Positions 1,243 through 62,314 of a stretch of 64,000 nucleotides of DNA are shown piece after piece. The notes beneath the pieces are model-generated. The model had not been told where the DNA came from. It was given only the letters and a program-made list of their open reading frames with translations, and made no database searches. The stretch's first letter is position 1. Each line of letters opens with the position of its first letter. Origin of the DNA: Cohnella thermotolerans DSM 17683 (GTDB lineage Bacteria > Bacillota > Bacilli > Paenibacillales > Paenibacillaceae); assembly GCF_000429825.1 (NCBI RefSeq), contig NZ_AUCP01000006.1, positions 87,215-151,214 of the forward strand. Reading direction: 5' to 3'. Both the position numbers and the translations under genes were made by a program.

Positions 1243-3342
1243 TTAGCGCTTGACTTTCAATTCGATCAAGCGCGCGGTTTTCTTCCGCGGGAGCGTGACC
1301 TTCAACTGTCCGGAAGAGGCGTGCCAGACGACGCGGCTGTCGCTTTCGCTCGGGTAGGCGATGCGAACCTCCGCGTCCGCGCCGGCCAGCTGCGGGATCG
1401 GCAAGACCGCTTCCGCGGATGGTCCGCCGAGCCGCCAAACGGCGACGTAAGCGCGGTCTCCGTGGCGAAGCCCGAAGCTGATCCAGTCGTCCTGCGCCGT
1501 CGGCAGGCCGAGCGGCCAGAAGGGCAGCGACTGGGCGATGTCCCCGCGAATCGTCTTGTAGTAGTCCAGCGCCTCCTTGACCAGCGCCCGCCGCCGCGGG
1601 CTGAGCTCGGCCAGATGGCCGCTCTGGTGAATGCGAAGCAGCATGGCGTTCACCATGTTGAAGACGACTTCCTCGTCGTCGCCTTCGCGCAGCGGATACG
1701 ACCAGATCGCCGATTGCTCCGGCGTCAGCGCCGACGGCGAGCTCGCGGCGATCGCCGCGTACTTGACGTAATCCTCCTGGTCGCTGGTGGACTGAATGCT
1801 GTGCCGGCTCAGCATCGCATAGTCCATCCGCATGCCGCCGCTGGAGCAGTTCTCGATGACGAGATCCGGATATTTGGCGAAAATCGAGTCGAGCCAAGCG
1901 AGATACGCGCGGTTGTGCTGCAGCAGACCGTCCCCGAAGCTGTCGGCGTTCGTCTCGGTGCCGATGCCCGCGTTGATGTTGTAGTCCATCTTGATATAGC
2001 CTACGCCGTAGTCTTCGACCAATCGGCGAATGACCTCGTTCGCGTGCGCGACGACTTCCGGGTTCCGGTAATCGAGCTGGTAGCGGCTGCGGTCTTTGAC
2101 CCGCTTCCCATGGCGCATAAAGAACCAGCCGTCGTTCGTCTCGGCAAGCTTCGGGCTCCGGATGCCCATGACCTCGAGCTCCAGCCAGAGGCCGGGAATC
2201 ATGCCCTTGCCGCGGATGTAGTCCAGCACATATTTAATGCCTTCCGGGAACCGTTCGGAAGAAGGCAGCCATTCGCCGACCCCGTCCCACCATTCTCCGG
2301 AGGCGTACCAGCCGGCGTCGATGCAGAAGTATTCGCAGCCGATCTCCGCCGCCGCGTCGATAAGCGGGATTAGCTTCGCGGTCGTCGGGCTGCCCCACAG
2401 GCAATTCATATAATCGTTGAAAATGACCCGAAGCAGCCGGTTGTCGTCGTTCGGGCGGCGTATGGCGCGGCGGTACGTCGTGAGCTGGGCGATCGCCTGC
2501 TCGAAGCCGCCTTTGACCGCGCCTACGGCCGCCGGAACGGTCGCAAACTCCTCGCCCGGACGAAGCTGCTTCCACCAGTGGTTGTCATGCTCCGTCGGAC
2601 CGCTGACGAGCAGCGTAAGGAAATTGAACTGATCGATGATTTCCCAATGCCAGGAGCCGTTGTGCTCGATTTGCCAGACGAGCGCCGTTCCCGCTTCCTT
2701 GTTTTCCAGCACCGCCATCGGAATATGCTCCGCGGCCGACCAGGAGCCGGTGTTGCTGCAGGAGATCCGCTTGGAGCTGCGGTCGGTCATATGCGACAAG
2801 CCCAGCTCGGGCAGCGTGTACGTCCGCCATTGCAGCTCGCTTTGCCAGCCGGAGTGCGGAATCGACACGGCGATCTTCGCGTCGCGGTCGAGCTCGCCTT
2901 CCTTGTCCAGCCCGGTCAGCGCGAAGGTGGAGACGTATTCGACGCCGACCGGCTCGCTTCCCGCGTTCTTGAGAACGGTCCAGCAGCGAACGACGGACAC
3001 GCCTTCGTAGAACTGGATATGCGAAGTCGACTCCAGCTTCGTCTCCGGGTCGACGAGCGCAATCTCCAGCTTGCGGCCGATCTCGTTGCGGGAATCGTTG
3101 TGCGACTTGTATCGCATGCGCAAGCCCGGGAACGTGGCCCGGTGCGTTCGCCCGTGATACTCCGCCCGATCCTCGCCCGTTAACTGCAGCTCCAGAAGGC
3201 GGAAGCCCTCCTCCTGCTTCTCGGCCACCAGCTCGGGCCGGAACGGCTCCGGCCCGAAGTGCAGCAAGCGGACGTCTAGCGAATCGGTCACTTTCAAAAC
3301 GAGATGCAGGCCGTTCTCCGTAATCTCGATCCATTTGCTCAT
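1243..3342 (-). CDS. GH36-family alpha-galactosidase
   Basis: Predicted 699-aa cytoplasmic glycosidase (no signal peptide) that removes terminal alpha-galactosyl residues. An N-terminal beta-rich domain is followed by a (beta/alpha)8 barrel. The barrel carries GCEYFCIDAGW, the nucleophile Asp in the KMDYN motif, and the acid/base region ENCSSGGMRMD, all characteristic of clan GH-D/GH36. The usual family length is about 700-740 aa. I start at ATG 3342 (MSKWIEITENG), which has GGAGGG about 10 nt upstream; the open frame continues 38 codons further upstream without a site and into a terminator. It lies downstream of a sugar-binding protein gene on the same strand, with a terminator between them, so readthrough may link the two. 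Substrate (raffinose, melibiose, galactosyl-glycerols) cannot be read from the sequence. Confidence 0.9.
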   Translation of the reverse strand: MSKWIEITENGLHLVLKVTDSLDVRLLHFGPEPFRPELVAEKQEEGFRLLELQLTGEDRAEYHGRTHRATFPGLRMRYKSHNDSRNEIGRKLEIALVDPETKLESTSHIQFYEGVSVVRCWTVLKNAGSEPVGVEYVSTFALTGLDKEGELDRDAKIAVSIPHSGWQSELQWRTYTLPELGLSHMTDRSSKRISCSNTGSWSAAEHIPMAVLENKEAGTALVWQIEHNGSWHWEIIDQFNFLTLLVSGPTEHDNHWWKQLRPGEEFATVPAAVGAVKGGFEQAIAQLTTYRRAIRRPNDDNRLLRVIFNDYMNCLWGSPTTAKLIPLIDAAAEIGCEYFCIDAGWYASGEWWDGVGEWLPSSERFPEGIKYVLDYIRGKGMIPGLWLELEVMGIRSPKLAETNDGWFFMRHGKRVKDRSRYQLDYRNPEVVAHANEVIRRLVEDYGVGYIKMDYNINAGIGTETNADSFGDGLLQHNRAYLAWLDSIFAKYPDLVIENCSSGGMRMDYAMLSRHSIQSTSDQEDYVKYAAIAASSPSALTPEQSAIWSYPLREGDDEEVVFNMVNAMLLRIHQSGHLAELSPRRRALVKEALDYYKTIRGDIAQSLPFWPLGLPTAQDDWISFGLRHGDRAYVAVWRLGGPSAEAVLPIPQLAGADAEVRIAYPSESDSRVVWHASSGQLKVTLPRKKTARLIELKVKR

Positions 3343-4935: not shown

Positions 4936-6576
4936 TTATCCATCCGATCGCTTCATCCGGTATTCGGAGGGCGAGATCGAGAAATAATTCCGGAACGCCT
5001 TGCTGAAGTAATTTTTGTCCTTGTAGCCGAGCATCTCGGAGATTTCCTGAATTTTGAGGTCCGATTCGCCCAGCAGCTCCTTCGCCTTTTCCATCCGGAT
5101 TTTCTGCACGTATTCATGAATGCCGCAGCCGTACTGCTGCTTGAACAGCTTCATCAAATATTCCCGGCTCAGAAAATATTTCTCCGTGAACATCGAAATT
5201 TTGATGTCCTCGAAATAATGCTGGTCGATGTAATCTTTGATTTCGCTGATGTCGAACGAACGATCGGTGCTCGCGGCGCTGCGGATCTGGTAAGCGTAAT
5301 AATCGGCGATCCGGCACAGAAGCGCCTCGTACTCGTCGAACCGGACGAAGTCGGACCCGATGCCGATCGCCTTCAAGCCCTCTGCGCCGCCCGTCGCCAG
5401 TTTATGCGAAGGAACGCCGAATTCCAGCGCCATATCGCCGAGGAGAATGAGGAACTCGTGCAAGATGCGGCTGGCGTCCTTCAAGCTGAAGCTGTCCAGG
5501 CTGCGAATTTTCTTCGTAAAATCGAGCACGATGCTTCGCACCTGATTCGCGTTGCCGGCCTCGATCGCGCTGCGAATCAGAGGAAGGCGGCTGGCGATCG
5601 TCGGGCTCTCCTTCGCGCTCGAGGGATCGGGCCGCCGGTCGGACACCGCCACGTCCCGCAGCTTTAGCAGATCGATCTCGTTTGCGGCCGTCTCCGCATA
5701 TTCGTAGGAAGCCGCCAGCTTCGACACGTCGGGGTCGGACGTTCCGACGCCCGCTACGGAGATAATCCCGAACAGGTCCTTCAAGGCGCCGACGACCTTC
5801 TTCACGAAATGAATCGACCTTAGCGCAATGTCTTCCGGATAGCCGCCGGAGATCGTCTGAATGACGACGACTTCCCGCTCCCGCTTGGGATGGGCAAAGC
5901 CGAAGCTCTTGAAGCCCTCCTCCGCAAATTCGTTAATGACGTTGGACACGGCAAAAAGAAGAAGGTCCGTCTCCCCGTTGAAGCGCGCTTCCGTCACCTG
6001 CTCCAGGTTGAGCATCCGCACGACTGCGGCGCCGAACCGCTTGCCCGGATCGTCCGCGCCGATGAGCCGGAGGAACGCCTCGTTATTTTTAACCTTGAAA
6101 TTGCGTTCGATCATCGAGAGATAAATATTTTCCTTGAGCTTCGGCACCGACATATTGAGCGTTATGTTGCGGTTGATGAACTCGCTCTCGCTTTCCTTCC
6201 GGGCCCGCAGCACGTCGATCGCCTTGCGGAGCGCTTGGTTCAGGTCCTGCCGGTTCACCGGCTTCAGCAAGTAATCGACGACCTTGGAGCGAATGGCCTG
6301 TCTCGTATATTCAAAATCGTTATAGCCGCTGATGACGATCGTAAACAGATTCGGATAATCTCTCTCCACATGCTGAAGAAACGCCATCCCGTCCATCTCG
6401 GGCATCTTCATGTCCACGAGCACGAGATCGGGTTTGCGCTCTTGCAGCAGCGCCAGGCCGGTTCTCCCGTCCCCGGCTTCCATCACTTCTTCCACACCGA
6501 GACCTTCCCAGTCTCCCAATATGCGAATCGCCTCGCGCGACGGTTCTTCGTCGTCGATAATCAGAACTTTATACAT
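4936..6576 (-). CDS. YesN-type response regulator with AraC-type DNA-binding domain
   Basis: 546-aa cytoplasmic regulator. The receiver domain (MYKVLIIDDEEPSREA) has phospho-acceptor Asp55 in VLVDMKMPEMDG and the Lys of YLLKPVN. A long middle region follows, and the C-terminal ~100 residues form an AraC/XylS double helix-turn-helix (SREYLMKLFKQQYG... IQEISEMLGYKDKNYFSKAFRNYFSISPSEYR). It overlaps the upstream kinase gene by 8 nt, which implies translational coupling. The start has GGGGAGG upstream. Its probable target is the neighbouring ABC importer (3475-4806 and 8570-10287). Confidence 0.95.
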   Translation of the reverse strand: MYKVLIIDDEEPSREAIRILGDWEGLGVEEVMEAGDGRTGLALLQERKPDLVLVDMKMPEMDGMAFLQHVERDYPNLFTIVISGYNDFEYTRQAIRSKVVDYLLKPVNRQDLNQALRKAIDVLRARKESESEFINRNITLNMSVPKLKENIYLSMIERNFKVKNNEAFLRLIGADDPGKRFGAAVVRMLNLEQVTEARFNGETDLLLFAVSNVINEFAEEGFKSFGFAHPKREREVVVIQTISGGYPEDIALRSIHFVKKVVGALKDLFGIISVAGVGTSDPDVSKLAASYEYAETAANEIDLLKLRDVAVSDRRPDPSSAKESPTIASRLPLIRSAIEAGNANQVRSIVLDFTKKIRSLDSFSLKDASRILHEFLILLGDMALEFGVPSHKLATGGAEGLKAIGIGSDFVRFDEYEALLCRIADYYAYQIRSAASTDRSFDISEIKDYIDQHYFEDIKISMFTEKYFLSREYLMKLFKQQYGCGIHEYVQKIRMEKAKELLGESDLKIQEISEMLGYKDKNYFSKAFRNYFSISPSEYRMKRSDG

Positions 6577-10671: not shown

Positions 10672-11112
10672 ATGAACATCCGGCTTCGCGGGCACCATCT
10701 TCTCTGTCTTCTCGGCTACAGAGGCAAAGGCTATTCCGACGGCTTCTGCGCCAACATGACCGACGTCTACGAGACGTTAAGGAAGCGTCCGGACACAACG
10801 ATCGACATCGTCGAAGGGCCGGACGACATCTGCCGGGCCTTCCCCGCCGATCAACCGTCGCATTGCGAAAATACGAGCGTCTACCGCAAAGACCAAGCGA
10901 TCCTCGAACGATTGGGGCTGCGTACGGGCCGATCGCTCCGTTGGAAGACGATCTGCGAGAAAGTCTCCGCCTCCGTCGCCCCCGGCGATATCGCGCATTT
11001 GTGCGCCGATTGCCGCTGGCAGCCGCTCGGCCTGTGCAGCGAAGGCGTCGGCCATATGCGCCAAGACCCCGCCCGCAGGCTTCGGGAGCTGCCGGGGAAC
11101 GTCCGCCCCTAA
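10672..11112 (+). CDS. DUF1284 domain-containing protein
   Basis: 146-aa small cytoplasmic protein of unknown function. It opens with MNIRLRGHHLLCLLGYRGKGYS, the signature of DUF1284. Several conserved-looking Cys (the HLLC motif, CANM, DICRAF, CADCRWQPLGLC) could bind a metal or Fe-S cluster; that is inference. Start ATG 10672 has AGGAAAGGA about 11 nt upstream. It appears to be monocistronic; the next gene starts 333 nt later. Confidence 0.8.
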   Translation: MNIRLRGHHLLCLLGYRGKGYSDGFCANMTDVYETLRKRPDTTIDIVEGPDDICRAFPADQPSHCENTSVYRKDQAILERLGLRTGRSLRWKTICEKVSASVAPGDIAHLCADCRWQPLGLCSEGVGHMRQDPARRLRELPGNVRP

Positions 11113-44030: not shown

Positions 44031-44450
44031 CTATTCGGCGGCGCACCGCGGACATGTCCCGAACAGCTCGATCCGGCAGCCTTCCACGAGATAACCGCCC
44101 CTCCGCTTCGGAATCTCCCGCGCGGCCTGCCAATAATCCCCCGCATCGATATCGTGAATTTCCCCGCAGCGTTTGCACGTAAAATGGCAGTGGTCCTTGC
44201 TGGCGAATTCATACCGATGGCTGCGCTGGTCGTCCGTGATCTCGGCGATCAGGCCCAAATCCTTCAGCGCTTTCAGCGTGTTGTAGACGGTCGCTTGGCT
44301 CATGTAGGGGAAAAGCTTCTGCATCCTCGCATAAATTTGATCCGCCGTCGGATGGGACAACTCCAGGAGAAGCTTCAGCACCTCTACACGCTGCGGAGTA
44401 ATTCTGAGCCCGTGCCCTTTCATAACGCCGACAAGCTCGTCGATACTCAT
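44031..44450 (-). CDS. perR: PerR-type peroxide-responsive Fur-family repressor
   Basis: 139-aa metalloregulator. Helix-turn-helix region HPTADQIYARMQKLFPYMSQATVYNTLKAL; His33 corresponds to the peroxide-sensing His37 of B. subtilis PerR. Metal region DHCHFTCKRCGEIHDID, with zinc-site pairs CKRC and CPRC near the C-terminus. PerR rather than Fur is supported by the divergent catalase gene and by the Per box between them. Start ATG 44450 (MSIDELVG) has AAGGGGAAGG upstream; an earlier in-frame ATG at 44489 has none. Confidence 0.9.
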   Translation of the reverse strand: MSIDELVGVMKGHGLRITPQRVEVLKLLLELSHPTADQIYARMQKLFPYMSQATVYNTLKALKDLGLIAEITDDQRSHRYEFASKDHCHFTCKRCGEIHDIDAGDYWQAAREIPKRRGGYLVEGCRIELFGTCPRCAAE

Positions 44451-44506
44451 AAGCCTTCCCCTTTCCGCATAACCATAATGGGACGCCATCGTGAAATCGC
44501 TTCACT

Positions 44507-44521
44507 TTATAATTATTATTA
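44507..44521. promoter_or_regulatory. Per box between perR and catalase
   Basis: TTATAATTATTATTA matches the PerR consensus TTATAATNATTATAA at 14 of 15 positions (counting N), and a second overlapping register ending at 44524 also matches well. It lies immediately upstream of the catalase -35 box and about 57 nt upstream of the perR start, so it can control both directions. Confidence 0.88.
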
Positions 44522-44528
44522 TAAAATA

Positions 44529-44557
44529 TTGACTGTAATGAAGTAACGGCTTAAAGT
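44529..44557 (+). promoter_or_regulatory. Probable catalase promoter
   Basis: TTGACT (44529-44534), 17-bp spacer, TAAAGT (44552-44557), 87 nt upstream of the catalase start and directly adjoining the Per box. Confidence 0.55.
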
Positions 44558-44643
44558 AAAAATGTACCCATTTATTTCTATTCCACAAGCTGTTAGCGGG
44601 GTAATGGAAGAAGACCATTTCGAAATCGAAGGGAGAAGAATTC

Positions 44644-46110
44644 ATGGACAGACTGACGACCAATCAGGGCGTGCCGATCGGGGACAATCAGAACTCGAGG
44701 ACGGCAGGCCAGCGCGGACCGACGTTATTGGAGGATTATCAACTGTTGGAAAAGCTGGCCCATTTCGACCGCGAGCGGGTGCCGGAACGCGTCGTGCATG
44801 CCAGGGGGGCGGGGGCTCACGGCGTTTTCAAGCTGACCAACAGCATGAAGCGGTATACGAAGGCGGCCTTCCTTCAGGATGAAGGCACGGAGACGCCCGT
44901 CTTCGTCCGGTTCTCGACCGTCGTTCACGGCCAGCACTCCCCGGAGACGCTTCGCGACCCGCGCGGCTTCGCGGTCAAGTTCTACACGACGGAAGGCAAT
45001 TACGACCTCGTCGGCAACAATCTCCCGGTCTTCTTCATCCGCGATGCCATGAAGTTTCCCGATATGGTCCACGCCTTAAAGCCCGACCCGCGCAACAACA
45101 TCCAGCATCCCGACCGTTACTGGGACTTCATGTCCCTCACGCCGGAGTCGACCAACATGCTGCTGCACCTGTTCTCGGACGAAGGGATTCCCGCGAGCTA
45201 CCGGCATATGAGAGGCTCCAGCGTCCACGCGTTCAAATGGATCAACGCCTACGGCAACACCGTATACGTCAAGCTGCGCTGGGTGCCGAAGCAGGGGCTG
45301 AAGAACCTCTCGGCCCAGGAAGCGTCCGCCGTTCAGGCCGTCGACTTCAACCACGCCAGCCGCGACCTGTACGAAGCCATCGAACGCGGCGACTATCCGC
45401 AATGGGATCTGTTCGTCCAAATTCTCGATCCGGCCGATATCGACAGCTTCGACTTCGACCCGCTTGATGCGACGAAGGATTGGTTCGAGGACGTGATCCC
45501 CTATCAGCTTGTCGGGACGATGACGTTGAACCGCAATCCCGCCAACGTGTTCGCGGAGACGGAATCGGTCGGCTTCAACCCCGGCGTCGTCGTTCCCGGC
45601 ATCGAGCCGTCGGAAGACAAGCTGCTTCAAGGCCGCCTCTTCTCCTATTCGGATACGCAGCGCTACCGGATCGGAACGAACTATTTGCAGCTGCCGATCA
45701 ATTGCCCGTTCGCCCAGGTGGCCAACAACCAGCGCGACGGTTCGATGCCGTTCAAGCAGCAGAGCGGCCATATCAATTACGAGCCCAACCGTTATCAGGA
45801 TACGCCGAAGGAAGATCCGGCCTTCACGGAAGCGTCCGCTCCGTTGTACGGCGCGGCGGGAAGGCAGAAGATCGCCAAGACGAACGACTTCGGGCAGGCG
45901 GGGCAAGTTTGGAACCGTTACTCCGACGAGGAGAAGGCCGCCGTCTTGAACAATCTGGCGGCCGATCTGGCGCAGGCGGCGGAGCCGACTCAACTGCGCG
46001 CGGTTTGCAACTTCTATCGGGCGGATGCCGAGTTGGGGCAACAGCTCGCGGATCGTCTGAAGATCGATATTACGCCTTACATCAGTCATGCGGCGGTTCC
46101 GAACAATTAA
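44644..46110 (+). CDS. Catalase (monofunctional heme type)
   Basis: 488-aa cytoplasmic heme enzyme that dismutates hydrogen peroxide. Active-site His region ERVVHARGAGAHGVF, conserved RDPRGFAVKFYTTEGNYDLVGNN and the heme-ligand Tyr region RLFSYSDTQRYRIG are all present. The segment FSTVVHGQHSPETLRDPRG resembles the KatX-like group more than B. subtilis KatA, so I give no symbol. Start ATG with GGGAGAAG upstream. Divergent from perR with a Per box between, so it is expected to be peroxide-inducible. Confidence 0.96.
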   Translation: MDRLTTNQGVPIGDNQNSRTAGQRGPTLLEDYQLLEKLAHFDRERVPERVVHARGAGAHGVFKLTNSMKRYTKAAFLQDEGTETPVFVRFSTVVHGQHSPETLRDPRGFAVKFYTTEGNYDLVGNNLPVFFIRDAMKFPDMVHALKPDPRNNIQHPDRYWDFMSLTPESTNMLLHLFSDEGIPASYRHMRGSSVHAFKWINAYGNTVYVKLRWVPKQGLKNLSAQEASAVQAVDFNHASRDLYEAIERGDYPQWDLFVQILDPADIDSFDFDPLDATKDWFEDVIPYQLVGTMTLNRNPANVFAETESVGFNPGVVVPGIEPSEDKLLQGRLFSYSDTQRYRIGTNYLQLPINCPFAQVANNQRDGSMPFKQQSGHINYEPNRYQDTPKEDPAFTEASAPLYGAAGRQKIAKTNDFGQAGQVWNRYSDEEKAAVLNNLAADLAQAAEPTQLRAVCNFYRADAELGQQLADRLKIDITPYISHAAVPNN

Positions 46111-47304: not shown

Positions 47305-49005
47305 TTACTCCTGCCGTGCGCCTGCCGCCTCTTCCAGATATTGTTCGAGCCGGTCGGCGCAATAAGCGGACTCCTCTTCCGTCCAGTCCAGCCAGTCGGC
47401 CATCGCTTCGATCACCGGAGTCTTCCAAGTCCGCACGGCCGCGATGTCGAAAAACAACCAGCCCGTCCGGCGGATGAAAAAATCCTCCGGTTGGACGGTC
47501 ATCTCGTGCTCCATGGCGTAACGCAGCCGAGCCGCGACTTCGGCGGACAGACCGTGACGTTCAGCCCATTGCCGCGTTCGCGAATCGATCGCAAGCGAGA
47601 ACAAGGCATCGACGTTCGAGCCGTAAAATCGGGCCAAAGCCTCAGCGTCTTTGGGGCTTAGGCCGATCCGGGCCCCTTCCTTCGTTTTGTGGGCCACGAA
47701 ACTTCCGTATGACGAGGAGCCGCCTACGTCTCCCCCGGAGATCGGAATGCCTCTCGTGCGGCACGGTCCCGCCGATCTTCCCGCCCGGTTGCCTTCGGCG
47801 GCAAGCCGCTTGACCACGTCGTCGACGACGGCCTCGGCCATCTTGCGGTAACCTGTCAGTTTGCCGCCCGCTATCGAGATCAGTCCCGAAGGCGAGTGAA
47901 AAATCTCGTCCCGGCGTGAAATTTCCGACGGATTCTTGCCCTCCTGTTGAATCAGAGGGCGCAACCCCGCCCAGCTCGACTCCACATCCGCTTCCGTCAG
48001 CTTGAGATCCGGGAACATGAAATTCGCCGCTTGCAGCAGGTAATCGCGATCCTCCGCGGTCGCCAGCGGATGCGCGATGTCGCCTTTGTAATTCGTGTCG
48101 GTCGTGCCCACATAGGTCTTGCCTGCCCTCGGAATGGAGAATATCATCCGGCCGTCCGGCGTATCGAAATACACGGCTTGGCGAAGCGGAAACCGACGCT
48201 GGTCAAAAACGAGATGCACCCCCTTGGTCAGCCGCAACGTCTTGCCTGTCTTGGACTTGTCGAACTCGCGGACGGAATCGACCCATGGGCCGGTCGCGTT
48301 GACGACTTTCGCGGCCCGGATCGCGTATTCTGCGCCGCCCGCCGTGTCCCGTACGAGCGCGCCCGTCAGCTTGCCGGAAGCGTCATAAGCGAAAGACTCT
48401 ACCTTGGCATAGTTCACGGCAAGCGCCCCCAGTTCTCTCGCCTTCTTCATGACTTCAATCGTGAGCCGCGCGTCGTCCGTCCGGTACTCCACGTAGTAAC
48501 CTCCGCCTTTAAGCCCTTTCCTCTTGAGCAGAGGCTCCCTGCGGAGAGTCTCTTCAACGCTCAGCATGGACCGGCGCTCGGCCTTCTTTACGCCCGCAAG
48601 GAAATCGTACAGCCGAAGGCCGATGGAAGTCGTGAATTTCCCGAATGTGCCGTCTTCGTACAGAGGGAGCAGCATCCATTCGGGCGTCGTCACATGAGGC
48701 CCGTTCTCGTATACGATTGCCCGTTCCTTGCCGACTTCGGCGACGACCCCGATTTCGAACTGCTTCAAGTATCGCAGCCCCCCGTGCACAAGCTTCGTCG
48801 AACGGCTCGAGGTTCCAGCCGCGAAATCCTGCATCTCGACGAGGCCGGTGCGCAAGCCGCGGCTTGCCGCGTCCAAAGCGATGCCCGCTCCCGTAATGCC
48901 TCCCCCGATTACGAGCAGGTCGAGCGGTTGATCACGCATATTCTCCAGGATGGCAACGCGTTCCCGGGCGGAGAATGTGCCGGTAAACGGTACGGATTGG
49001 GACAT
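47305..49005 (-). CDS. glpD: Aerobic glycerol-3-phosphate dehydrogenase
   Basis: 566-aa membrane-associated flavoenzyme that oxidises glycerol-3-phosphate to dihydroxyacetone phosphate and reduces menaquinone. FAD site DLLVIGGGITGAGIALDAASRGL, and GGLRYLKQFEIGVVAEVGKER, VNATGPWVD and GGKLTGYRKMAE of the family are visible. ATG 49005 chosen with GGGAGGAAA upstream; a TTG two codons earlier is less well placed. A terminator hairpin in the leader (49066-49128) suggests control by the GlpP antiterminator encoded just upstream in the same direction. Confidence 0.95.
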   Translation of the reverse strand: MSQSVPFTGTFSARERVAILENMRDQPLDLLVIGGGITGAGIALDAASRGLRTGLVEMQDFAAGTSSRSTKLVHGGLRYLKQFEIGVVAEVGKERAIVYENGPHVTTPEWMLLPLYEDGTFGKFTTSIGLRLYDFLAGVKKAERRSMLSVEETLRREPLLKRKGLKGGGYYVEYRTDDARLTIEVMKKARELGALAVNYAKVESFAYDASGKLTGALVRDTAGGAEYAIRAAKVVNATGPWVDSVREFDKSKTGKTLRLTKGVHLVFDQRRFPLRQAVYFDTPDGRMIFSIPRAGKTYVGTTDTNYKGDIAHPLATAEDRDYLLQAANFMFPDLKLTEADVESSWAGLRPLIQQEGKNPSEISRRDEIFHSPSGLISIAGGKLTGYRKMAEAVVDDVVKRLAAEGNRAGRSAGPCRTRGIPISGGDVGGSSSYGSFVAHKTKEGARIGLSPKDAEALARFYGSNVDALFSLAIDSRTRQWAERHGLSAEVAARLRYAMEHEMTVQPEDFFIRRTGWLFFDIAAVRTWKTPVIEAMADWLDWTEEESAYCADRLEQYLEEAAGARQE

Positions 49006-49065
49006 GGCCAATTTCCTCCCTGATGATTGATTGGACTATAAAAAAATCCGATCGGTTCGCGGAAG

Positions 49066-49128
49066 CAAAAAGAGAAACCTCGAACGGGTTCCGGGGCGAA
49101 CGCTCCGGAACCTCATGCGAGGTTTCTC
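49066..49128 (-). promoter_or_regulatory. Leader terminator before glpD, likely GlpP target
   Basis: Perfect arms GAGAAACCTCG / CGAGGTTTCTC (49072-49082 and 49118-49128) enclosing a second stem GGTTCCGG / CCGGAACC, with TTTTTGC after it on the minus strand. It sits between glpK and glpD, 61 nt before the glpD start. The layout is that of the B. subtilis glpD leader, where GlpP with glycerol-3-phosphate prevents termination. Confidence 0.85.
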
Positions 49129-49156
49129 CAAGATCTCCAACCGATATGAACTTGTA

Positions 49157-50683
<1,527 letters not shown>

Positions 50684-51238
50684 CTATCCCCCGAGCCCCC
50701 ACAGCTCCCGCCTGGAGGTCGTAATCGCCGTGGCCCCGGCCCCGAGCGCCGCGCCAACGTCCTCCGCCGACCGAATGAGTCCCCCGGCAATGATGGGAAT
50801 GCCCGTTCTTTCCTTCACCTCGCCGATCAGATGAGGAATGACGCCCGGCAGCACCTCGATAAAATCCGGGCGGGTCTTCTCGAACAACGAATAGCTCTTC
50901 TCCAGCGCGCCCGAGTCGATCAGGAACAGCCGCTGCACGGCGATGAGCTTGTTCTGTTTTGTCTTCTGAATGACGCTGGCCCGGGTCGAGATGAGCCCCG
51001 CCGGCCGAACTTTCTGGCAAAGAAATTCGGCCGCGTATTCGTCGTTCTTCAGCCCGTCGATGAGGTCGGCGTGGAGCAGCACCTTTTTGCCGTGGCGTTC
51101 CGCCAGTTCCACAAGCGGACGAAGCTGTCCCAGGTGACCGCCGAGCAGCACCAAATAAACAAAAGGGGCAGCGAGTACCCCTTCGAGTTCCTTTGCCGTT
51201 CTTACCGCCGGCAATACGGTCTGGTTCCGAAAAGGCAT
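50684..51238 (-). CDS. glpP: Glycerol-3-phosphate-responsive antiterminator GlpP
   Basis: 184-aa RNA-binding antiterminator with a TIM-barrel-like fold. Recognisable sections are LPAVRTAKELEGVLA, VFLLGGHLGQL-type segment (VYLVLLGGHLGQLRPLV), KKVLLHADLIDGLKNDEYA, and PDFIEVLPGVIPHLIGEVKERT. It allows readthrough of glp leader terminators in the presence of glycerol-3-phosphate. Its ribosome binding site GGAGG overlaps the stop codon of the upstream lacI-type gene, and only 9 nt separate the two reading frames, so it belongs to the beta-galactoside operon. Confidence 0.93.
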   Translation of the reverse strand: MPFRNQTVLPAVRTAKELEGVLAAPFVYLVLLGGHLGQLRPLVELAERHGKKVLLHADLIDGLKNDEYAAEFLCQKVRPAGLISTRASVIQKTKQNKLIAVQRLFLIDSGALEKSYSLFEKTRPDFIEVLPGVIPHLIGEVKERTGIPIIAGGLIRSAEDVGAALGAGATAITTSRRELWGLGG

Positions 51239-51247
51239 ATCAACCCT

Positions 51248-54318
<3,071 letters not shown>

Positions 54319-54336
54319 GCTGTCTGCTCCCTGTCG

Positions 54337-55158
54337 TTATTCTTTGACCGCGGTGCCGAGCACCCCGGAGATGAAATGCCGCTGCAGCAGCAGGAAAAAT
54401 ACGATGATCGGGCCAGTGGCGATCGTGACGCCCGCCATGACCTGGCCGTAATCGATACGCGACAAGCCGAACAAGCTCGACAACGCCACCGGCAGCGTGT
54501 ACATCGACTTGGAGGACGCCGCGATCAGCGGCCACAAGAAGCTGTTCCACTGGTACATGAACAGGAAGATCGCCGTGGCGGCCAGCGCCGGCTTCACCGA
54601 CGGAAGAATGATGCTGGTGAACAGCTTCCATTCCCCCACGCCGTCGATCCTGCCCGCTTCCATCATGGCGTCCGGAACGGCCTGCATGTTTTGCCTCATG
54701 AGAAATATCGCGAACGGATACGCCAGGTTTGGCAAAATGAGCGCCTGATACGAGTTCAACCAGCCCCAGGCGGCCATCATCTTGAACAGCGGAATGACGA
54801 GCGCGTGGAACGGCACCATCATCGACAGCAGGAAAGCGGAGAACAGCGCGTCGCGCCCTTTGAACTTGAATTTGGCGAACGCGTAACCGGCCATCGTGCA
54901 AATCATAAGACTTAGCGCAGTGTAGATCGTAACGACAATGAGCGAATTCGAGACGACCCGTCCGATGTCGATCGCTTTGTCGAGATTAGAGATATTGTCC
55001 CATAGCTTGGCTCCCGGCTTCAATATCGGCGGCTTAGCGAATACTTTCCCGCTCTCGTTCGTCGCCGAAACCGCCGCCCAATAGAACGGGAACAAGGACA
55101 CGATCGCGCCTAACGCCAGCAGCAGGTAGACAAGTACGTTCGTGCGCAGCGTTCTCAT
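54337..55158 (-). CDS. Sugar ABC transporter permease (MalG/UgpE type)
   Basis: 273-aa permease, about six transmembrane segments, EAA loop DAMMEAGRIDGVGEWKLFTSIILPSVKPAL, C-terminus FISGVLGTAVKE. The start is ATG 55158, which overlaps the stop of the other permease (ATGA) and has GGAGG 7 nt upstream; the open frame begins earlier. Third gene of the beta-galactoside operon. Confidence 0.93.
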   Translation of the reverse strand: MRTLRTNVLVYLLLALGAIVSLFPFYWAAVSATNESGKVFAKPPILKPGAKLWDNISNLDKAIDIGRVVSNSLIVVTIYTALSLMICTMAGYAFAKFKFKGRDALFSAFLLSMMVPFHALVIPLFKMMAAWGWLNSYQALILPNLAYPFAIFLMRQNMQAVPDAMMEAGRIDGVGEWKLFTSIILPSVKPALAATAIFLFMYQWNSFLWPLIAASSKSMYTLPVALSSLFGLSRIDYGQVMAGVTIATGPIIVFFLLLQRHFISGVLGTAVKE

Positions 55159-56006
55159 GCTTTTTCCTCCGTCCATTTAAATTGGATGAACGAGACGACG
55201 GCAATCAGAACGACGATCACATATGCCAGCGTCGAAGCGTATCCAAAATCGAAATAACGGAAGCCCGTCTGATACAGGTACATCCCGATCGTCAGCGTGG
55301 CGTCGCTGGGCCCGCCCTTCGTCAGCGTATAGGGCTCGTCAAAAAGCTGCAGCGTTCCGATCGTCGAGAGAATCGCCGTAAAGAGGATTACGGGCTTTAA
55401 CTGCGGAATGGTAACGGCAAAAAATTGCTTGAACCGGCCGGCTCCGTCCAGACTCGCTGCCTCGTACAGGGATTCGGGAATATTTTGCATGGCGGCCAGG
55501 AAGATGACCATGTTGTAGCCGGTCCACCGCCAGGTCATCGCCAGAATCAACGCGGCCTTCGCCCATATCGGATCGGACAGCCACGGAATCGCCTTGATGC
55601 CCAAAGCGCCGAGGAACTGGTTGATCAGCCCGTCCTCCATGAGCATGATGGAGAAAATGATCGAGTACGCGACGAGCGACGTCACGGCCGGCATGAAGAA
55701 GGACACGCGAAAAAGGCCTTTCCAGCGTTTGATCGAGTTCAGCATCGAAGCGAGCACGATCGCCCCGAACAGCATGATCGGAACTTGGACAACGAGAAGA
55801 ACAAATGTATTTTTTAGCGCCGTAAAGAAGATATCGTCGCTGAATAATCGACGGTAGTTGTCCAGACCGGCGAAGGTCATCTCCCCGCCCTGTGACGTCT
55901 GGAAGCTGAGAAGAAAAGAATATAAAATCGGATAAACCATAAAAATGGCGAACAGAACGATCGCGGGGGTCAAGAATAGGTATGGGATATAGCTCTTGGT
56001 TCTCAC
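55155..56006 (-). CDS. Sugar ABC transporter permease (MalF/UgpA type)
   Basis: 283-aa permease with about six transmembrane segments and EAA loop ESLYEAASLDGAGRFKQFFAVTIPQLKPV. GTG start with AAGGAGG 8 nt upstream. It lies between the binding-protein gene and the second permease, and is coupled to the latter by a 4-nt overlap. Confidence 0.93.
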   Translation of the reverse strand: MRTKSYIPYLFLTPAIVLFAIFMVYPILYSFLLSFQTSQGGEMTFAGLDNYRRLFSDDIFFTALKNTFVLLVVQVPIMLFGAIVLASMLNSIKRWKGLFRVSFFMPAVTSLVAYSIIFSIMLMEDGLINQFLGALGIKAIPWLSDPIWAKAALILAMTWRWTGYNMVIFLAAMQNIPESLYEAASLDGAGRFKQFFAVTIPQLKPVILFTAILSTIGTLQLFDEPYTLTKGGPSDATLTIGMYLYQTGFRYFDFGYASTLAYVIVVLIAVVSFIQFKWTEEKA

Positions 56007-56099
56007 CTTAGGCTCCTCCTTGCAGCTGGCTCGGTGATGGAAACAGGAAGAGATTTAGGATCCTCTCCTAAATCTCGTTCCTGTCGTGCCGCGATCCGA

Positions 56100-57419
56100 T
56101 TAGTAGTTGTTTACGTTGCGCTTCGTCCGGCTCTTGAGACTGTCTGCAGCAGACTTCAAGGCTTCCTTGGCGGATTGGCCCATGAACACGTGAGCTTGCG
56201 CCTTGACCGCTTCGTCCATGGCGATCGCATAGTCCTTGGTGTAGTAAGGCGTCGGAATGCTCTTCATTTCGTCCGCGAACAGCTTCCAGATCTTCTGTCC
56301 GCCGAAGAAGGCGACGTCGGATTGGAAGATCGGCTGCGAGTACGTGGAGAGCAGAGACGGGAACAACCCGTGTTTTTCCATGGCCATTTGCTGAACCTCA
56401 GGCGTCGTGGCGAAATATTTCGCAAACTCGAATGCTTCGTCGGGATGCTTCGTCGCGGAGGGAATCATCCAGCTCGAGCCGCCTAGGTTCGCCGCTCGGT
56501 TGCCGCCCTTCTCGAACGCCGGAAGCTGGATGACGCCCCATTTGCCGTTCGTGTCTTTCGCCTGATCGATAATAGTGCCGTAATACCAAGCGCCGAACGG
56601 AACGGTGGCCACGGAGCCGTCGACCGTAGCGGATACGGTTCCATCCCAGCCGTTGACGTCTTTCACGAGATCGGCGTCCCCAAGCTTCTTGAGGGTATCG
56701 AGCGCTTGAACGGCCTTCGGGTTGTTAAAGTCGATATTGCCGTCTTTGTCGAAGTAGAATACGCCGAGCTCATTGAGCATCATGCGGAAATTGGCGTCAT
56801 CCTTGAATTTGTCGGCCGGCAGCAGGTATGCGCCGGTTTTTTCCTTGATCGTCTTGCCCGCGGCGATGAAGTCGTCCCACGTCTCGATGCTTTCCGCTTT
56901 AACGCCGGCTTTGTCGAAAATGTCCCTGCGGTAGAACAGACCAGTCGGGCCCGCGTCGAACGGCAGTGCGTAATAAGAGCCGTCTTTGGAAGTCAGCTGC
57001 TGTTTGAACGCCGGAAAGTCCTTGCCGTCAAAGCCTTTATCGCTCAAATTCAGAAAACCTTTTGGGAACGCATCCAAATATCCCTGAATGCGGTCATCCT
57101 CGACAAGCACGATATCTGGAAGCCCTTGGCCGCCAGCCGCAAGACCCGTGGACAGTTTGTCGTATACGTCCAGGCGGCCCATGTCCTCGACTTTAAGCTC
57201 GACGTTAGGGTGGTCTTTCTTATACAATTCCATTGCGTCGTTCAAGGCGCCGACATTGACGTTCCATGCCCATGCCGACAAGGTCACCTTGTTCTCGTCC
57301 GCCGCTCCGCTTCCGGAATCGGAAGATGGAGCGGCATTGTTGTCATTCGAGTTGCCGCACGCTCCCAAGACAACGGATGTGGCCAGCAGCAGGCCGATAC
57401 CTTTGGAAAGCTTGTTCAT
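56100..57419 (-). CDS. Sugar ABC transporter extracellular solute-binding lipoprotein
   Basis: 439-aa lipoprotein, family 1. N-terminus MNKLSKGIGLLLATSVVLGACGNSND with lipobox LGAC, followed by an Asn/Ser/Ala linker and mature region KVTLSAWAWNVNVGALNDAMELYKKDHPNVEL. Start ATG 57419 with GAGGGGG upstream; the open frame extends to 57473. First gene of the beta-galactoside operon. A cre-like site and a long inverted repeat lie upstream. Confidence 0.93.
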   Translation of the reverse strand: MNKLSKGIGLLLATSVVLGACGNSNDNNAAPSSDSGSGAADENKVTLSAWAWNVNVGALNDAMELYKKDHPNVELKVEDMGRLDVYDKLSTGLAAGGQGLPDIVLVEDDRIQGYLDAFPKGFLNLSDKGFDGKDFPAFKQQLTSKDGSYYALPFDAGPTGLFYRRDIFDKAGVKAESIETWDDFIAAGKTIKEKTGAYLLPADKFKDDANFRMMLNELGVFYFDKDGNIDFNNPKAVQALDTLKKLGDADLVKDVNGWDGTVSATVDGSVATVPFGAWYYGTIIDQAKDTNGKWGVIQLPAFEKGGNRAANLGGSSWMIPSATKHPDEAFEFAKYFATTPEVQQMAMEKHGLFPSLLSTYSQPIFQSDVAFFGGQKIWKLFADEMKSIPTPYYTKDYAIAMDEAVKAQAHVFMGQSAKEALKSAADSLKSRTKRNVNNY

Positions 57420-57466: not shown

Positions 57467-57485
57467 CAACCATCCTTATCCTAGC

Positions 57486-57527
57486 TAAATATTAAGTAAA
57501 AATCAATACTTTTTTAGTTAATATTTA
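57486..57527. promoter_or_regulatory. 10-bp inverted repeat, candidate operator of the LacI regulator
   Basis: Perfect arms TAAATATTAA (57486-57495) and TTAATATTTA (57518-57527), 22 bp apart, in the AT-rich promoter region of the beta-galactoside operon. A possible -35/-10 pair, TTGATT and TAGGAT, lies between and beyond the arms on the minus strand. LacI-type operators are usually closer palindromes, so assignment is tentative. Confidence 0.4.
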
Positions 57528-59912: not shown

Positions 59913-60986
59913 TCACCCGGCTTCCCGTCCCGCCCGGATTTGCTTGCTGCGGAGCTGCCCGCAGGCGGCGTCGATATCGGCGCCGTGCTCCAGGCGGACG
60001 CTACAGCTGACGCCCTGCTTCTTGAGCGTATCGAAGAACGTCCGGATCGATTCCGGTTCGCTTCTCTGGTATTGGCTATGTTCGTCCACCGGATTATAGG
60101 GAATCAGGTTGACGTTGACGAGCGGACGCCGCCGGTCGCCGATCAGCTCGGCCAGCTCCAGCGCATGCTCCTTCCGGTCGTTGACGTCTTTGAGCAGAAT
60201 GTACTCCAAGGTCAATCTGCGGTTCGTGCGCTCCAGGTAATAATCGATGGCCGCCATCAGCTTCTCGATCGGTATGGCCCGGTTGATCTTCATGATGCGC
60301 GTGCGAAGCTCGTTGTTCGGCGCGTGCAGAGATACGGCCAGGTTCACCTGCAGGTCGCTGTCCGCGAACTCGCGGATTTTATCCGCAAGACCGCTGGTGG
60401 ACACGGTAATGTGGCGGGGCCCGATGGCCAGCCCTTTGGACTCCTTGATGACCCGGATGAAATCCGCCATGTTGCCGTAATTGTCGAAAGGTTCGCCGAT
60501 GCCCATCACGACGGCGTGGCTCACCTTCTCGCCGCGGCCCGCCCGATCCAAATGAAGCTGAACTTGCATAATCTGCTCCGTGATCTCGCCGGCGGACAAA
60601 TCCCGGCTCTTCGCGAGGAGGCCGCTCGCGCAGAAGCTGCAGCCGATGTTGCAGCCCACTTGCGTCGTCACGCACACGGACAATCCGAATTTGTGCCGCA
60701 TCAGCACCGTTTCGATCAGGTTGCCGTCCTTCAGCCGGAACAGAAACTTGATCGTCCCGTCCGCAGACTCCTGCCGCGTATGCTCGCTCAGCGTGGAGAT
60801 CGCGAAATGCTCGGCCAACGCCTCCCGGCAGGATGCATGCACGCCGATCATGTCCTCGAACGCCGTCGCCCGCTTCCGGTACAGCCAGTCCCATACTTGC
60901 AGCGCCCGCGACTTCTTGTGGCCGCACTCTTCCAGCCAGGCGGTCAGCTTATCTAAAGTCAATCCGTAAATGGATTCCCGTTCCAT
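59913..60986 (-). CDS. rlmN: 23S rRNA (adenine-C2)-methyltransferase RlmN
   Basis: 357-aa radical SAM enzyme methylating A2503 of 23S rRNA (and A37 of some tRNAs). The SAM-cluster motif [11 protein letters not shown] (CxxxCxxC), GMGEPFDNY-type segment ([13 protein letters not shown]), and the C-terminal Cys in [21 protein letters not shown], required for the two-step chemistry, are present. The open frame runs much further upstream, but ATG 60986 has ACGAGGA at correct spacing and homology starts there. Confidence 0.95.
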
Positions 60987-61141
60987 TTCCATTCCTCGTT
61001 TCACTAGCAAACTTAACGTTCTTCTCTTTTGCGATTCGCTTCTTATTGTCCCAGAGTTAACGTGATTTAACAAGTTCCGGGGGGCCTCCCCTTCCGTCCT
61101 TCCTGAACGGGACGCCCGAGAATCCCGACAAAAGCGCAAAG

Positions 61142-61163
61142 AAACCGCTGCGCGCCGCGGTTT
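61142..61163 (-). terminator. Intrinsic terminator of the glycerate kinase gene
   Basis: Stem AAACCGC / GCGGTTT, followed on the minus strand by CTTTGCGCTTTTG, 20 nt after the kinase stop. Confidence 0.7.
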
Positions 61164-61183
61164 GTGCTTTTCTCCGCTTCTGT

Positions 61184-62314
61184 TTATCTCGCCGTCCAAA
61201 GCCGGACAACCCGCTCCGCGCAATCCGCGAGAAGCCCGTAAGCACCCCGCATCGCCTCTTCCAGCGCCATCGGCCCGTTCACGATGGAGAACGCGCTGAC
61301 GACGCCGTGCCGGTACATCGACTCGACGCCCCGTCCGAGCGCCCCCGAGAGGAGGATGACGGGAATGCCTGCTTTCTCGGCCGCCTGGGCTACGCCGAAC
61401 GGCGTTTTCCCCATCTCCGTCTGGTCGTCGCTCTGCCCTTCGCCGGTCAGGACCAGATCGGCCCCGAGCAATTTTTCTTCCAGCCGACTGGCCTCGATCA
61501 CCAACCGCACTCCCTTCTGCAGCGTACCGTTCAGAAAGGCGACAACGGCCGCGCCCAGACCTCCCGCCGCTCCCGCTCCCGCCAGATCGCGAACCGGCCG
61601 GTGCAATTGCCTTTCGATCACCTCAGAGAAACGGTACAGATTGCGGTCTAACGCGGCGACCATGTCGGGGTCCGCGCCTTTCTGCGGCCCGAACACCGCG
61701 CTTGCCCCTCTCGGTCCGCATAACGGATTGTCCACATCGCAGGCGGCGGTGAAGACGCTCTCTTCAATCCGGGCATCGAAGCCGCTCAGGTCGAGGCGAT
61801 GAAGACGGTCGAGGCTCCCTCCGCCGAGCGGCAGCTCCCTGCCGTCCCGATCCAGCAACCTGGCCCCCAGCGCCTGGATCATGCCGGCCCCGCCGTCATT
61901 CGTTGCGCTTCCGCCCAAACAAACAATAAAGCGGCGGCAGCCTTGGTCCAGGGCGTCCCGGATCAACTCGCCCGTACCGTAAGTCGAGGCGATCAGCGGA
62001 TTGCGGCGTGAAGCCGGGATCCGATAAAGCCCCGACGCTTCGGCCACTTCGATGACGGCCGTCGCTTCGTCCTGCAAAATGCCGTATTTCGCCTCAATCA
62101 GTTCCCCAAGCGGGTTATGAACGGTCGCGCTGCGAATCCGGCCGTTCATCGCGCCGACCAGGCTTTGCACGGTGCCTTCGCCTCCGTCCGCCATCGGCAC
62201 CCGAACGATCTCGGCGTCCGGAAGGACCCTTCGTATTCCTTCCTCCATGGCCCGGCAAGCCTCGGTCGCGGTCAGACTTCCCTTGTAGGAATCGGGGGCA
62301 AGCACGATTCTCAT
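61184..62314 (-). CDS. Glycerate kinase (GarK/GlxK family)
   Basis: 376-aa cytoplasmic kinase phosphorylating D-glycerate. Typical start [29 protein letters not shown], then [34 protein letters not shown] and [38 protein letters not shown] lies before the ATG. It stands alone, downstream of no other sugar-acid genes in the window. Confidence 0.93.

What the first reader, a model, noticed from the sequence alone, without database searches (positions are those of the whole stretch)
47305..57419. Beta-galactoside importer/GH42 operon continues into glpP-glpK-glpD: possible galactosyl-glycerol utilisation system
All genes from the binding protein (57419) to glpD (47305) are on one strand. The lacI-type and glpP genes are 9 nt apart and the glpP ribosome binding site overlaps the lacI stop codon. 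There is no glpF in the cluster. Known biochemistry: GH42 cuts beta-galactosides, GlpK/GlpD use glycerol, and GlpP responds to glycerol-3-phosphate. Inference: the imported substrate contains both galactose and glycerol, such as beta-galactosyl-glycerol from plant galactolipids, so internal glycerol needs no facilitator.
Basis: partly seen in the sequence, partly recalled or inferred. Interest (0 to 1): 0.85.

Follow-up and report, generated by a model that had tools for sequence, protein, structure and literature searches.

The report
Galactose–glycerol import and digestion operon
Eight neighbouring bacterial genes, kept in the same order in several related species, likely let the cell take in a sugar joined to glycerol (predicted to be the head of plant leaf lipids) and would burn the glycerol half as well as the sugar, which would make a food source proposed in 1979 open to direct test.

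Summary
In detail: SBP, two permeases, GH42, LacI-type regulator, glpP, glpK and glpD lie on one strand, lacI and glpP 9 nt apart. It is not unique. Of 13 Paenibacillales genomes with this GH42 (7 of 392 and 11 of 394 scanned, 5 shared), 11 have glpD and 9 glpK beside it; 6 keep the full order. In 3, another transporter and regulator took over, yet GH42-glpK-glpD stayed together. Outside the order, 9 of 9 loci carry galK instead and no glp. A palindrome recurs before importer operons, before stand-alone lacI-glpPKD, and in 4 of 4 loci fetched later. The GH42-glycerol link is thus conserved. Best reading: a glycerol-bearing galactoside, likeliest galactosylglycerol; no call tests the substrate. 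Against it: two GH42 genomes lack glp, 11 of 80 glpP loci keep lacI-glpPKD without this GH42, in 6 of 8 genomes the linked glpK is the only one, and the GH42 clade has replaced both residues that bind galactose O6.

The parts
57491..57522 (-). Two operator-like sites (57522-57512 ATTAACTAAAA and 57501-57491 TTTTACTTAAT), each 9 of 11 to the family palindrome TTTTASTAAAA, the second inside a promoter-like spacer (TTGATT 57506-57501, TAGGAT 57483-57478)
   Evidence: two sites at 9 of 11, expected 0.14 in shuffles; relatives carry 10 or 11 of 11; the promoter-like pair is read by eye and is not in the scan's list
56100..57419 (-). Lipoprotein substrate-binding protein (ORF opens at 57473; the likely start is 57419 behind a GGGGG site)
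   Evidence: nearest solved structures 6q5g/6h0h, E about 1e-29
56050..56076 (-). Hairpin between SBP and first permease gene, possibly setting SBP excess
   Evidence: 20 terminator-like sites found in the region, 15.9 expected, so weak
55155..56006 (-). ABC permease 1 (MalF/UgpA-like)
   Evidence: below all NCBIfam cut-offs
54337..55176 (-). ABC permease 2 (MalG/UgpE-like)
   Evidence: below all NCBIfam cut-offs
52366..54318 (-). GH42 glycoside hydrolase; catalytic E142/E305 kept, H313 and C356 replace the usual Trp/His pair
   Evidence: model mean pLDDT 88.2
51248..52369 (-). LacI-type repressor (EbgR-like, below that model's cut-off); likely start 52312
   Evidence: close relatives (E<=1e-90) in 16 of 392 order genomes, this one included
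50684..51238 (-). glpP, glycerol-3-phosphate responsive antiterminator
   Evidence: PF04309 205 bits
49157..50665 (-). glpK, glycerol kinase
   Evidence: over cut-off for TIGR01311
49163..49192 (-). Promoter-like site for glpD at the end of glpK
   Evidence: 10 of 12 matches (9 promoter-like sites found in the region, 4.4 expected)
49066..49129 (-). glpD leader: GGAGAAAC...GTTTCTC hairpin followed by a T run, predicted GlpP-controlled terminator
   Evidence: z -6.0; GGAGAAAC leader in 11 of 14 loci examined
47305..49011 (-). glpD, glycerol-3-phosphate dehydrogenase
   Evidence: below the NCBIfam cut-offs; Pfam DAO and DAO_C over theirs

Best explanation
This conserved eight-gene cluster likely works as one galactoside-and-glycerol operon: its ABC importer is predicted to take up a beta-galactoside of glycerol (most likely galactosylglycerol, the head group of plant galactolipids), the GH42 enzyme would cut it inside the cell, and GlpK and GlpD would burn the glycerol half. 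The galactose half would go to the Leloir genes held elsewhere in the genome (galK-galE-galT on contig C15). Without substrate the LacI-type protein likely represses the promoter before the binding-protein gene. Once glycerol is phosphorylated, GlpP bound to glycerol-3-phosphate is predicted to open the leader terminator before glpD, so the second half of the pathway is switched on by its own product. Shown here: gene order, its conservation, the palindrome, the leader hairpin, the exchange of galactose genes for glycerol genes between lineages. Inferred: repression, co-transcription, substrate, enzyme activity.
For: (1) Conservation: 13 Paenibacillales genomes with this GH42; 6 with all eight genes in order, 2 with GH42-LacI-glpD, 3 with GH42-glpK-glpD behind another ABC transporter and a two-component system, 2 without glp. 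(2) In the 3 rearranged loci regulator and transporter changed but GH42, glpK and glpD stayed neighbours; in G320 GH42 and glpK overlap by ATGA, in G831 and G837 glpK starts within about 50 nt of the GH42 stop, depending on the start codon. (3) Outside the order the same hydrolase sits with galK in 9 of 9, galE and galT in 8 of 9, GH36 alpha-galactosidase in 7 of 9, and glp in 0 of 9, so the core is a galactoside system. (4) Palindrome TTTTASTAAAA at 10 or more of 11: 6 of 7 importer promoters, 5 of 5 testable outside the order, 10 of 11 stand-alone lacI-glpPKD, 4 of 4 loci fetched later; exact sites number only 2-8 per genome in 8 genomes. (5) The SBP's nearest solved relative, Bal6GBP (6H0H), binds beta-1,6-galactobiose (PMC8106489 passages). 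(6) In another GH42 (BiBga42A), Trp-326 stacks on the +1 sugar ring (PMC10688820 passages); this clade has His there in 120 of 120 listed proteins, which would suit a small non-ring aglycone such as glycerol.
Against: Two GH42 loci (G106, G877) lack glp. Eleven of 80 glpP loci have lacI-glpPKD without this GH42 or importer in view. In 6 of 8 genomes with lacI-glpPKD the linked glpK is the only GlpK at E<=1e-100, so the set is often housekeeping rather than dedicated. The window's own operator sites are only 9 of 11. The His/Cys changes are shared by relatives whose loci have no glp, so they predate the glycerol link, and the lost pair normally binds galactose O6. The three loci with a swapped transporter form one group nested in the cassette group, so the glycerol link may have arisen once. 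I ran no count of glp neighbours for other GH42 clades as a control. No call tests substrate, binding or transcription.
Confidence: 0.55

Rival explanations
1. An ordinary beta-galactoside (lactose or galactan oligosaccharide) operon settled upstream of the housekeeping glpPKD genes, and the adjacency has been inherited without a shared substrate.
For: In 6 of 8 genomes the linked glpK is the only one; glpPKD of this type occurs widely without GH42; two GH42 loci have no glp; glpD has its own promoter-like site and leader; the same importer and GH42 clade serves galactose clusters elsewhere.
Against: Retention across genera at about 66-84% protein identity; GH42, glpK and glpD kept as neighbours when transporter and regulator were replaced; the repressor's palindrome kept before stand-alone lacI-glpPKD in 10 of 11; this genome keeps a second full glp set.
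Confidence: 0.27
2. The same logic with another glycoside: the imported compound carries glycerol but the sugar is not plain galactose, for example alpha-galactosyl-1,6-galactosylglycerol (digalactolipid head), an arabinopyranosyl- or a glucosyl-glycerol.
For: Both residues that bind galactose O6 in BiBga42A (Trp-326, His-369; PMC10688820 passages) are His and Cys in 120 of 120 listed clade members, while 5 of 5 solved GH42 chains shown have Trp and His. GH36 alpha-galactosidase shares the cluster in 7 of 9 loci outside the order, as a digalactosyl head would need.
Against: The residues aligned to those on the O4, O2 and O3 side and both catalytic glutamates are kept, and galK/galE partners outside the order point to galactose.
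Confidence: 0.13
3. The substrate is a bacterial glycolipid or teichoic acid fragment recycled by the cell, not a plant compound.
For: Glycosyl-glycerols also occur in Gram-positive membranes and walls (recalled, no call).
Against: The GH42 is patchy (7 of 392 genomes), unlike a housekeeping recycling route, and its partners outside the order are galactoside genes.
Confidence: 0.05

Closest known systems
E. coli lac operon as a galactosylglycerol system (Egel 1979, 1988, as cited in PMC8333865)
   Same: beta-galactosidase also degrades galactosylglycerols from galactolipids, proposed as a reason to keep lac (passages seen); repressor, importer and beta-galactosidase in one system (recalled)
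   Different: No glycerol genes in lac (recalled); here GH42 and an ABC importer with glpP-glpK-glpD in the same gene row
Galactoside clusters in other Bacilli (SBP-permeases-GH36-galK-galE-galT-GH42-LacI)
   Same: Related SBP (48-70%, in view in 7 of 9 loci), permeases (57-76%), GH42 (56-67%), LacI (43-59%, 8 of 9) and the same palindrome in 5 of 5 testable
   Different: Galactose catabolism genes in place of glycerol genes
Synechocystis slr1670 beside glpK, glucosylglycerol re-assimilation (PMC5002435)
   Same: A glucosylglycerol hydrolase gene directly upstream of glpK (passages)
   Different: Other hydrolase family (GHL5), an osmolyte made by the cell itself; no importer or LacI in the passages seen; glpK inactivation had no effect on glycerol production there
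Bifidobacterium animalis GH42 plus Bal6GBP importer
   Same: GH42 with a selective galactoside-binding ABC importer (PMC8106489 passages); nearest solved SBP relative
   Different: Binds beta-1,6-galactobiose; no glycerol genes mentioned in the passages seen
B. subtilis glpP/glpFK/glpD regulon
   Same: GlpP and a conditional terminator before glpD (PMC9604022 passages)
   Different: No glpF here, and glpPKD follows a LacI-type galactoside block
Sulfoquinovosyl-glycerol import (SmoF)
   Same: Binding protein for a glycosyl-glycerol; listed among solved relatives of the SBP
   Different: Weak match (E 1e-13) and another sugar; the rest of that pathway is recalled only

Membership tests
GH42 glycoside hydrolase | GH42 catalytic and trimerisation domains | tested here: met
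   PF02449 394 bits, PF08532 149 bits
GH42 glycoside hydrolase | Acid/base and nucleophile glutamates | tested here: met
   E142 and E305, 120 of 120 listed proteins, the window's own included
Canonical GH42 beta-galactosidase | Trp and His that bind galactose O6 | tested here: not met
   H313 and C356 in 120 of 120; Trp and His in 5 of 5 solved chains shown (roles from PMC10688820 passages)
Canonical GH42 beta-galactosidase | Hydrolysis of beta-galactosides | not testable with these tools
   no assay
Carbohydrate ABC importer | Lipoprotein SBP plus two inner-membrane permeases | tested here: met
   none of the eight cluster genes is an ATPase
LacI-type local repressor | LacI HTH plus sugar-binding domain | tested here: met
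   PF00356, PF13377
LacI-type local repressor | Palindromic operator at the promoter | tested here: inconclusive
   relatives 10-11 of 11; window only two sites at 9 of 11
GlpP antitermination regulon | GlpP protein and terminator-like leader before glpD | tested here: met
   PF04309; leader hairpin z -6.0, GGAGAAAC leader in 11 of 14 loci; antitermination itself untested
B. subtilis-type glpPFKD operon | glpF in the cluster | tested here: not met
   glpF on C58 instead
Galactosylglycerol utilisation system | Uptake and growth on galactosylglycerol | not testable with these tools
   gene partnership only

The most novel reading that the evidence does not exclude
A dedicated galactolipid-head operon: one repressor, importer and GH42 core exchanged its galactose-catabolism genes for glycerol-catabolism genes, placed glycerol kinase and glycerol-3-phosphate dehydrogenase under a galactoside repressor plus GlpP feed-forward, and uses a GH42 clade whose O6/+1 site is rebuilt for galactosyl- (or digalactosyl-) glycerol.
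Probability: 0.42. Interest if true: 0.76.

Novelty: new variant of a known kind. Interest (0 to 1): 0.62.

Why it matters
Galactolipids are main components of chloroplast membranes (PMC8333865 passage), and galactosylglycerol was proposed in 1979 as the real food behind the lac operon, yet I saw no described bacterial operon that joins a galactosidase to glycerol catabolism (listings only; an open-licence library, most subscription papers missing). If right, this gives named genes, a repressor site and simple growth tests for that idea. It also gives a clean case of a sugar operon changing what it feeds by exchanging its downstream module, and a GH42 clade with an unusual active site.

Tried and rejected
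Rejected: (a) adjacency unique to this genome: refuted. (b) No glpF as evidence for internal glycerol: 79 of 80 related glpP loci show none. (c) A palindrome hit near the HK-RR-ABC transporter of G410 first looked like a second regulon member; it lies inside the response-regulator gene, where the codons of a YFSKSFKK stretch also found in G320 spell it, so I dropped it. (d) The surface double esterase beside LacI relatives in 7 genomes as a galactolipase completing this pathway: no match at E<=1e-60 in 16 of 16 genomes searched, the 13 GH42 genomes among them. That call held no genome known to match, so it is weak by itself. (e) Other exact palindromes: 12 further sites in six genomes were looked at, none clearly in this regulon; the 8 sites of G219 and the 7 others of G106 were not looked at. 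(f) Paper searches for a GH42-glycerol operon found nothing on point (listings only). (g) SBP fold prediction and fold searches were not run. The AlphaFold model of GH42 is weakest at 274-276, 310-318 and 352-354, the altered loops among them, so I drew no pocket geometry from it.

Limits: G790's glpK and glpD are in pieces in a fragmented assembly and were counted as present. Operator shuffles were mononucleotide. The palindrome was read, which showed the 7 importer promoters plus G410 and G368 (the same loci as L048 and L037) and G233; those are not independent tests, the rest are (8 of 9 stand-alone lacI loci, 6 of 6 esterase loci, 5 of 5 outside the order, 4 of 4 fetched later). Of the nine loci outside the order, five were scanned before the SBP; the other four (SBP start cut off or not in the stretch) were scanned before GH42 and gave 0 of 4. 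Four of the eleven stand-alone lacI loci have a distant GH42 (28-32%) on the other strand 2-5 kb beyond glpD.
Full report
Observation. The eight genes lie on the minus strand as described. lacI and glpP are 9 nt apart and GGAGGTGA overlaps the lacI stop. No glpF is in the cluster. The genome's one glpF-type gene sits on contig C58 in a second set glpF-glpP2-glpK2-glpD2. No promoter-like or terminator-like site was found between lacI and glpP; a terminator-like site at 51184-51162 lies inside glpP, and such sites are near chance frequency in the region (20 found, 15.9 expected). glpD is set off by its own promoter-like site and a strong hairpin-plus-T leader.

Conservation. Related loci come from genome contigs (the best 80 loci with a close glpP) and from whole-genome scans. 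In the 80 loci, three named species carry the full order: Paenibacillus prosopidis, Cohnella luojiensis, P. alkalitolerans. The GH42 at E<=1e-180 is found in 7 of 392 order genomes and 11 of 394 family genomes, 13 different genomes. Annotation of their surroundings: SBP-permease-permease-GH42-LacI-glpP-glpK-glpD in G000 (this genome), G029, G049, G210, G790, G848; the same block with glpD only in G219 and G876; two-component system, another SBP and permeases, then GH42-glpK-glpD in G320, G831, G837; no glp in G106 and G877. So glpD is adjacent in 11 of 13 and glpK in 9 of 13. In the stretches held (about 13 to 20 kb), galK/galE/galT turn up in 0 of 13 and no glpF hit was seen. A further genome, G400, has the importer, LacI and glpD but no GH42. 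In G320 GH42 and glpK overlap by ATGA; in G831 and G837 glpK starts within about 50 nt of the GH42 stop, depending on the start codon.

The other side of the exchange. In 398 genomes of the class the GH42 is found in 10, nine of them outside the order. Around those nine: galK 9 of 9, galE 8 of 9, galT 8 of 9, GH36 7 of 9, glp genes 0 of 9; two of the nine (G606, G418) showed no SBP or permease in the stretch held, and G702 showed no LacI. In the GH42 tree the seven order genomes fall in one group of 18 rows (support 100/100). The simplest history, an inference, is that a galactoside cluster gave up its galactose module and gained glycerol genes once, and that a later change of transporter and regulator kept GH42, glpK and glpD together.

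Regulation. A palindrome TTTTASTAAAA was read from upstream sequences and then counted. At 10 or more of 11 matches it is before the SBP in 6 of 7 Paenibacillales loci (the window has two sites at 9 of 11, expected 0.14), before the SBP in 5 of 5 testable loci outside the order, before stand-alone lacI-glpPKD in 10 of 11, and before a surface esterase gene in 7 of 7. Four loci fetched later all have it. The three loci with GH42-glpK-glpD and no LacI do not. Exact sites are rare, 2 to 8 per genome in 8 genomes. The window's LacI has Thr where the 19 other proteins listed have Ile, Leu or Met at one position of the recognition helix, which fits its drifted sites but is only suggestive. The glpD leader with GGAGAAAC is in 11 of 14 loci examined and missing from the three loci with GH42-glpK-glpD and no adjacent glpP, though G837 keeps a similar hairpin. 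GlpP bound to glycerol-3-phosphate disrupts such a terminator in B. subtilis (PMC9604022, passages).

Enzyme. GH42 domains and both catalytic glutamates are present. In BiBga42A galactose O6 is held by Trp-326 and His-369 and O4 by Arg-121 and Glu-366, and Trp-326 also stacks on the +1 sugar (PMC10688820, passages); the A4 enzyme's numbering is Trp320, His363 (PMC7602713, passages). By alignment these two are H313 and C356 here, in 120 of 120 of the listed proteins, which are the top 120 of 2140 hits, the window's own included. Five of five solved GH42 chains shown have Trp and His. A histidine that recognises the C6-OH is also the residue changed in a GH42 arabinopyranosidase (PMC8106489, passages). 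So this is a GH42 clade with an altered O6 pocket and no stacking Trp at +1. That would fit a small acyclic aglycone, and perhaps a substituted C6, but it also means plain beta-galactosidase activity should not be assumed.

Absence of glpF is a trait of this glpP type: 79 of 80 loci show none. In 6 of 8 genomes with lacI-glpPKD the linked glpK is the only one found at E<=1e-100; only G000 and G049 have another. Eleven of the 80 glpP loci have lacI-glpPKD without this GH42, although four of the eleven have a distant GH42 (28-32%) on the other strand 2-5 kb beyond glpD, against one distant GH42 in the other 66 loci without the cassette (these species may be close kin, so this is a hint only). 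Two GH42 genomes have no glp. The esterase linked to LacI in seven other genomes was not found in the 16 genomes tested (no positive control in that call), so it probably does not complete this pathway.

Verdict. That this GH42 cassette is functionally tied to glycerol catabolism is well supported by conserved and rearranged neighbourhoods (my estimate 0.75-0.8). That the compound is galactosylglycerol is the most economical reading and untested (about 0.55). The idea that lac serves galactosylglycerol is old (Egel 1979, cited in PMC8333865, passages), and a glycosylglycerol hydrolase gene next to glpK is known in Synechocystis (PMC5002435, passages); the combination here I saw nowhere in the listings, which cover open-licence papers only.

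Noticed in passing
An exact copy of the same palindrome lies before the esterase gene in 7 of 7.
   Followed up: partly
L043 16027-18081, L045 13830-15788, L051 17768-19822, L052 18845-20524: Four of the eleven stand-alone lacI-glpPKD loci carry a distant GH42 (28-32% to the window's) on the other strand 2-5 kb beyond glpD; it may replace the lost one.
   Followed up: partly
L203 about 6017-6150 (G000 contig C2): An exact TTTTAGTAAAA lies between a distant LacI gene (29%) and an SBP-permease operon elsewhere in this genome; it may belong to that local regulator.
   Followed up: no
L143 about 10824-10890 (G106): A hairpin like the GlpP-type leader (GGGGAGAAACC...GGTTTCTC plus T run) follows lacI although no glp gene is there; the next gene looks by eye like a GerA-type spore germination protein (no call).
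   Followed up: no
window 59913-61223, minus strand: RlmN-type radical SAM rRNA methyltransferase (over the TIGR00048 cut-off, below all Cfr cut-offs); its longest ORF overlaps the glycerate kinase gene 61184-62314.
   Followed up: partly
window 44031-46110: A Fur/PerR-like regulator ORF (by eye) and a catalase gene lie on opposite strands beyond the glp genes.
   Followed up: no
window 1720-2478, minus strand: A melibiase-like (PF02065) match in the window, besides a strong one on contig C6 and a weak one on C53.
   Followed up: no
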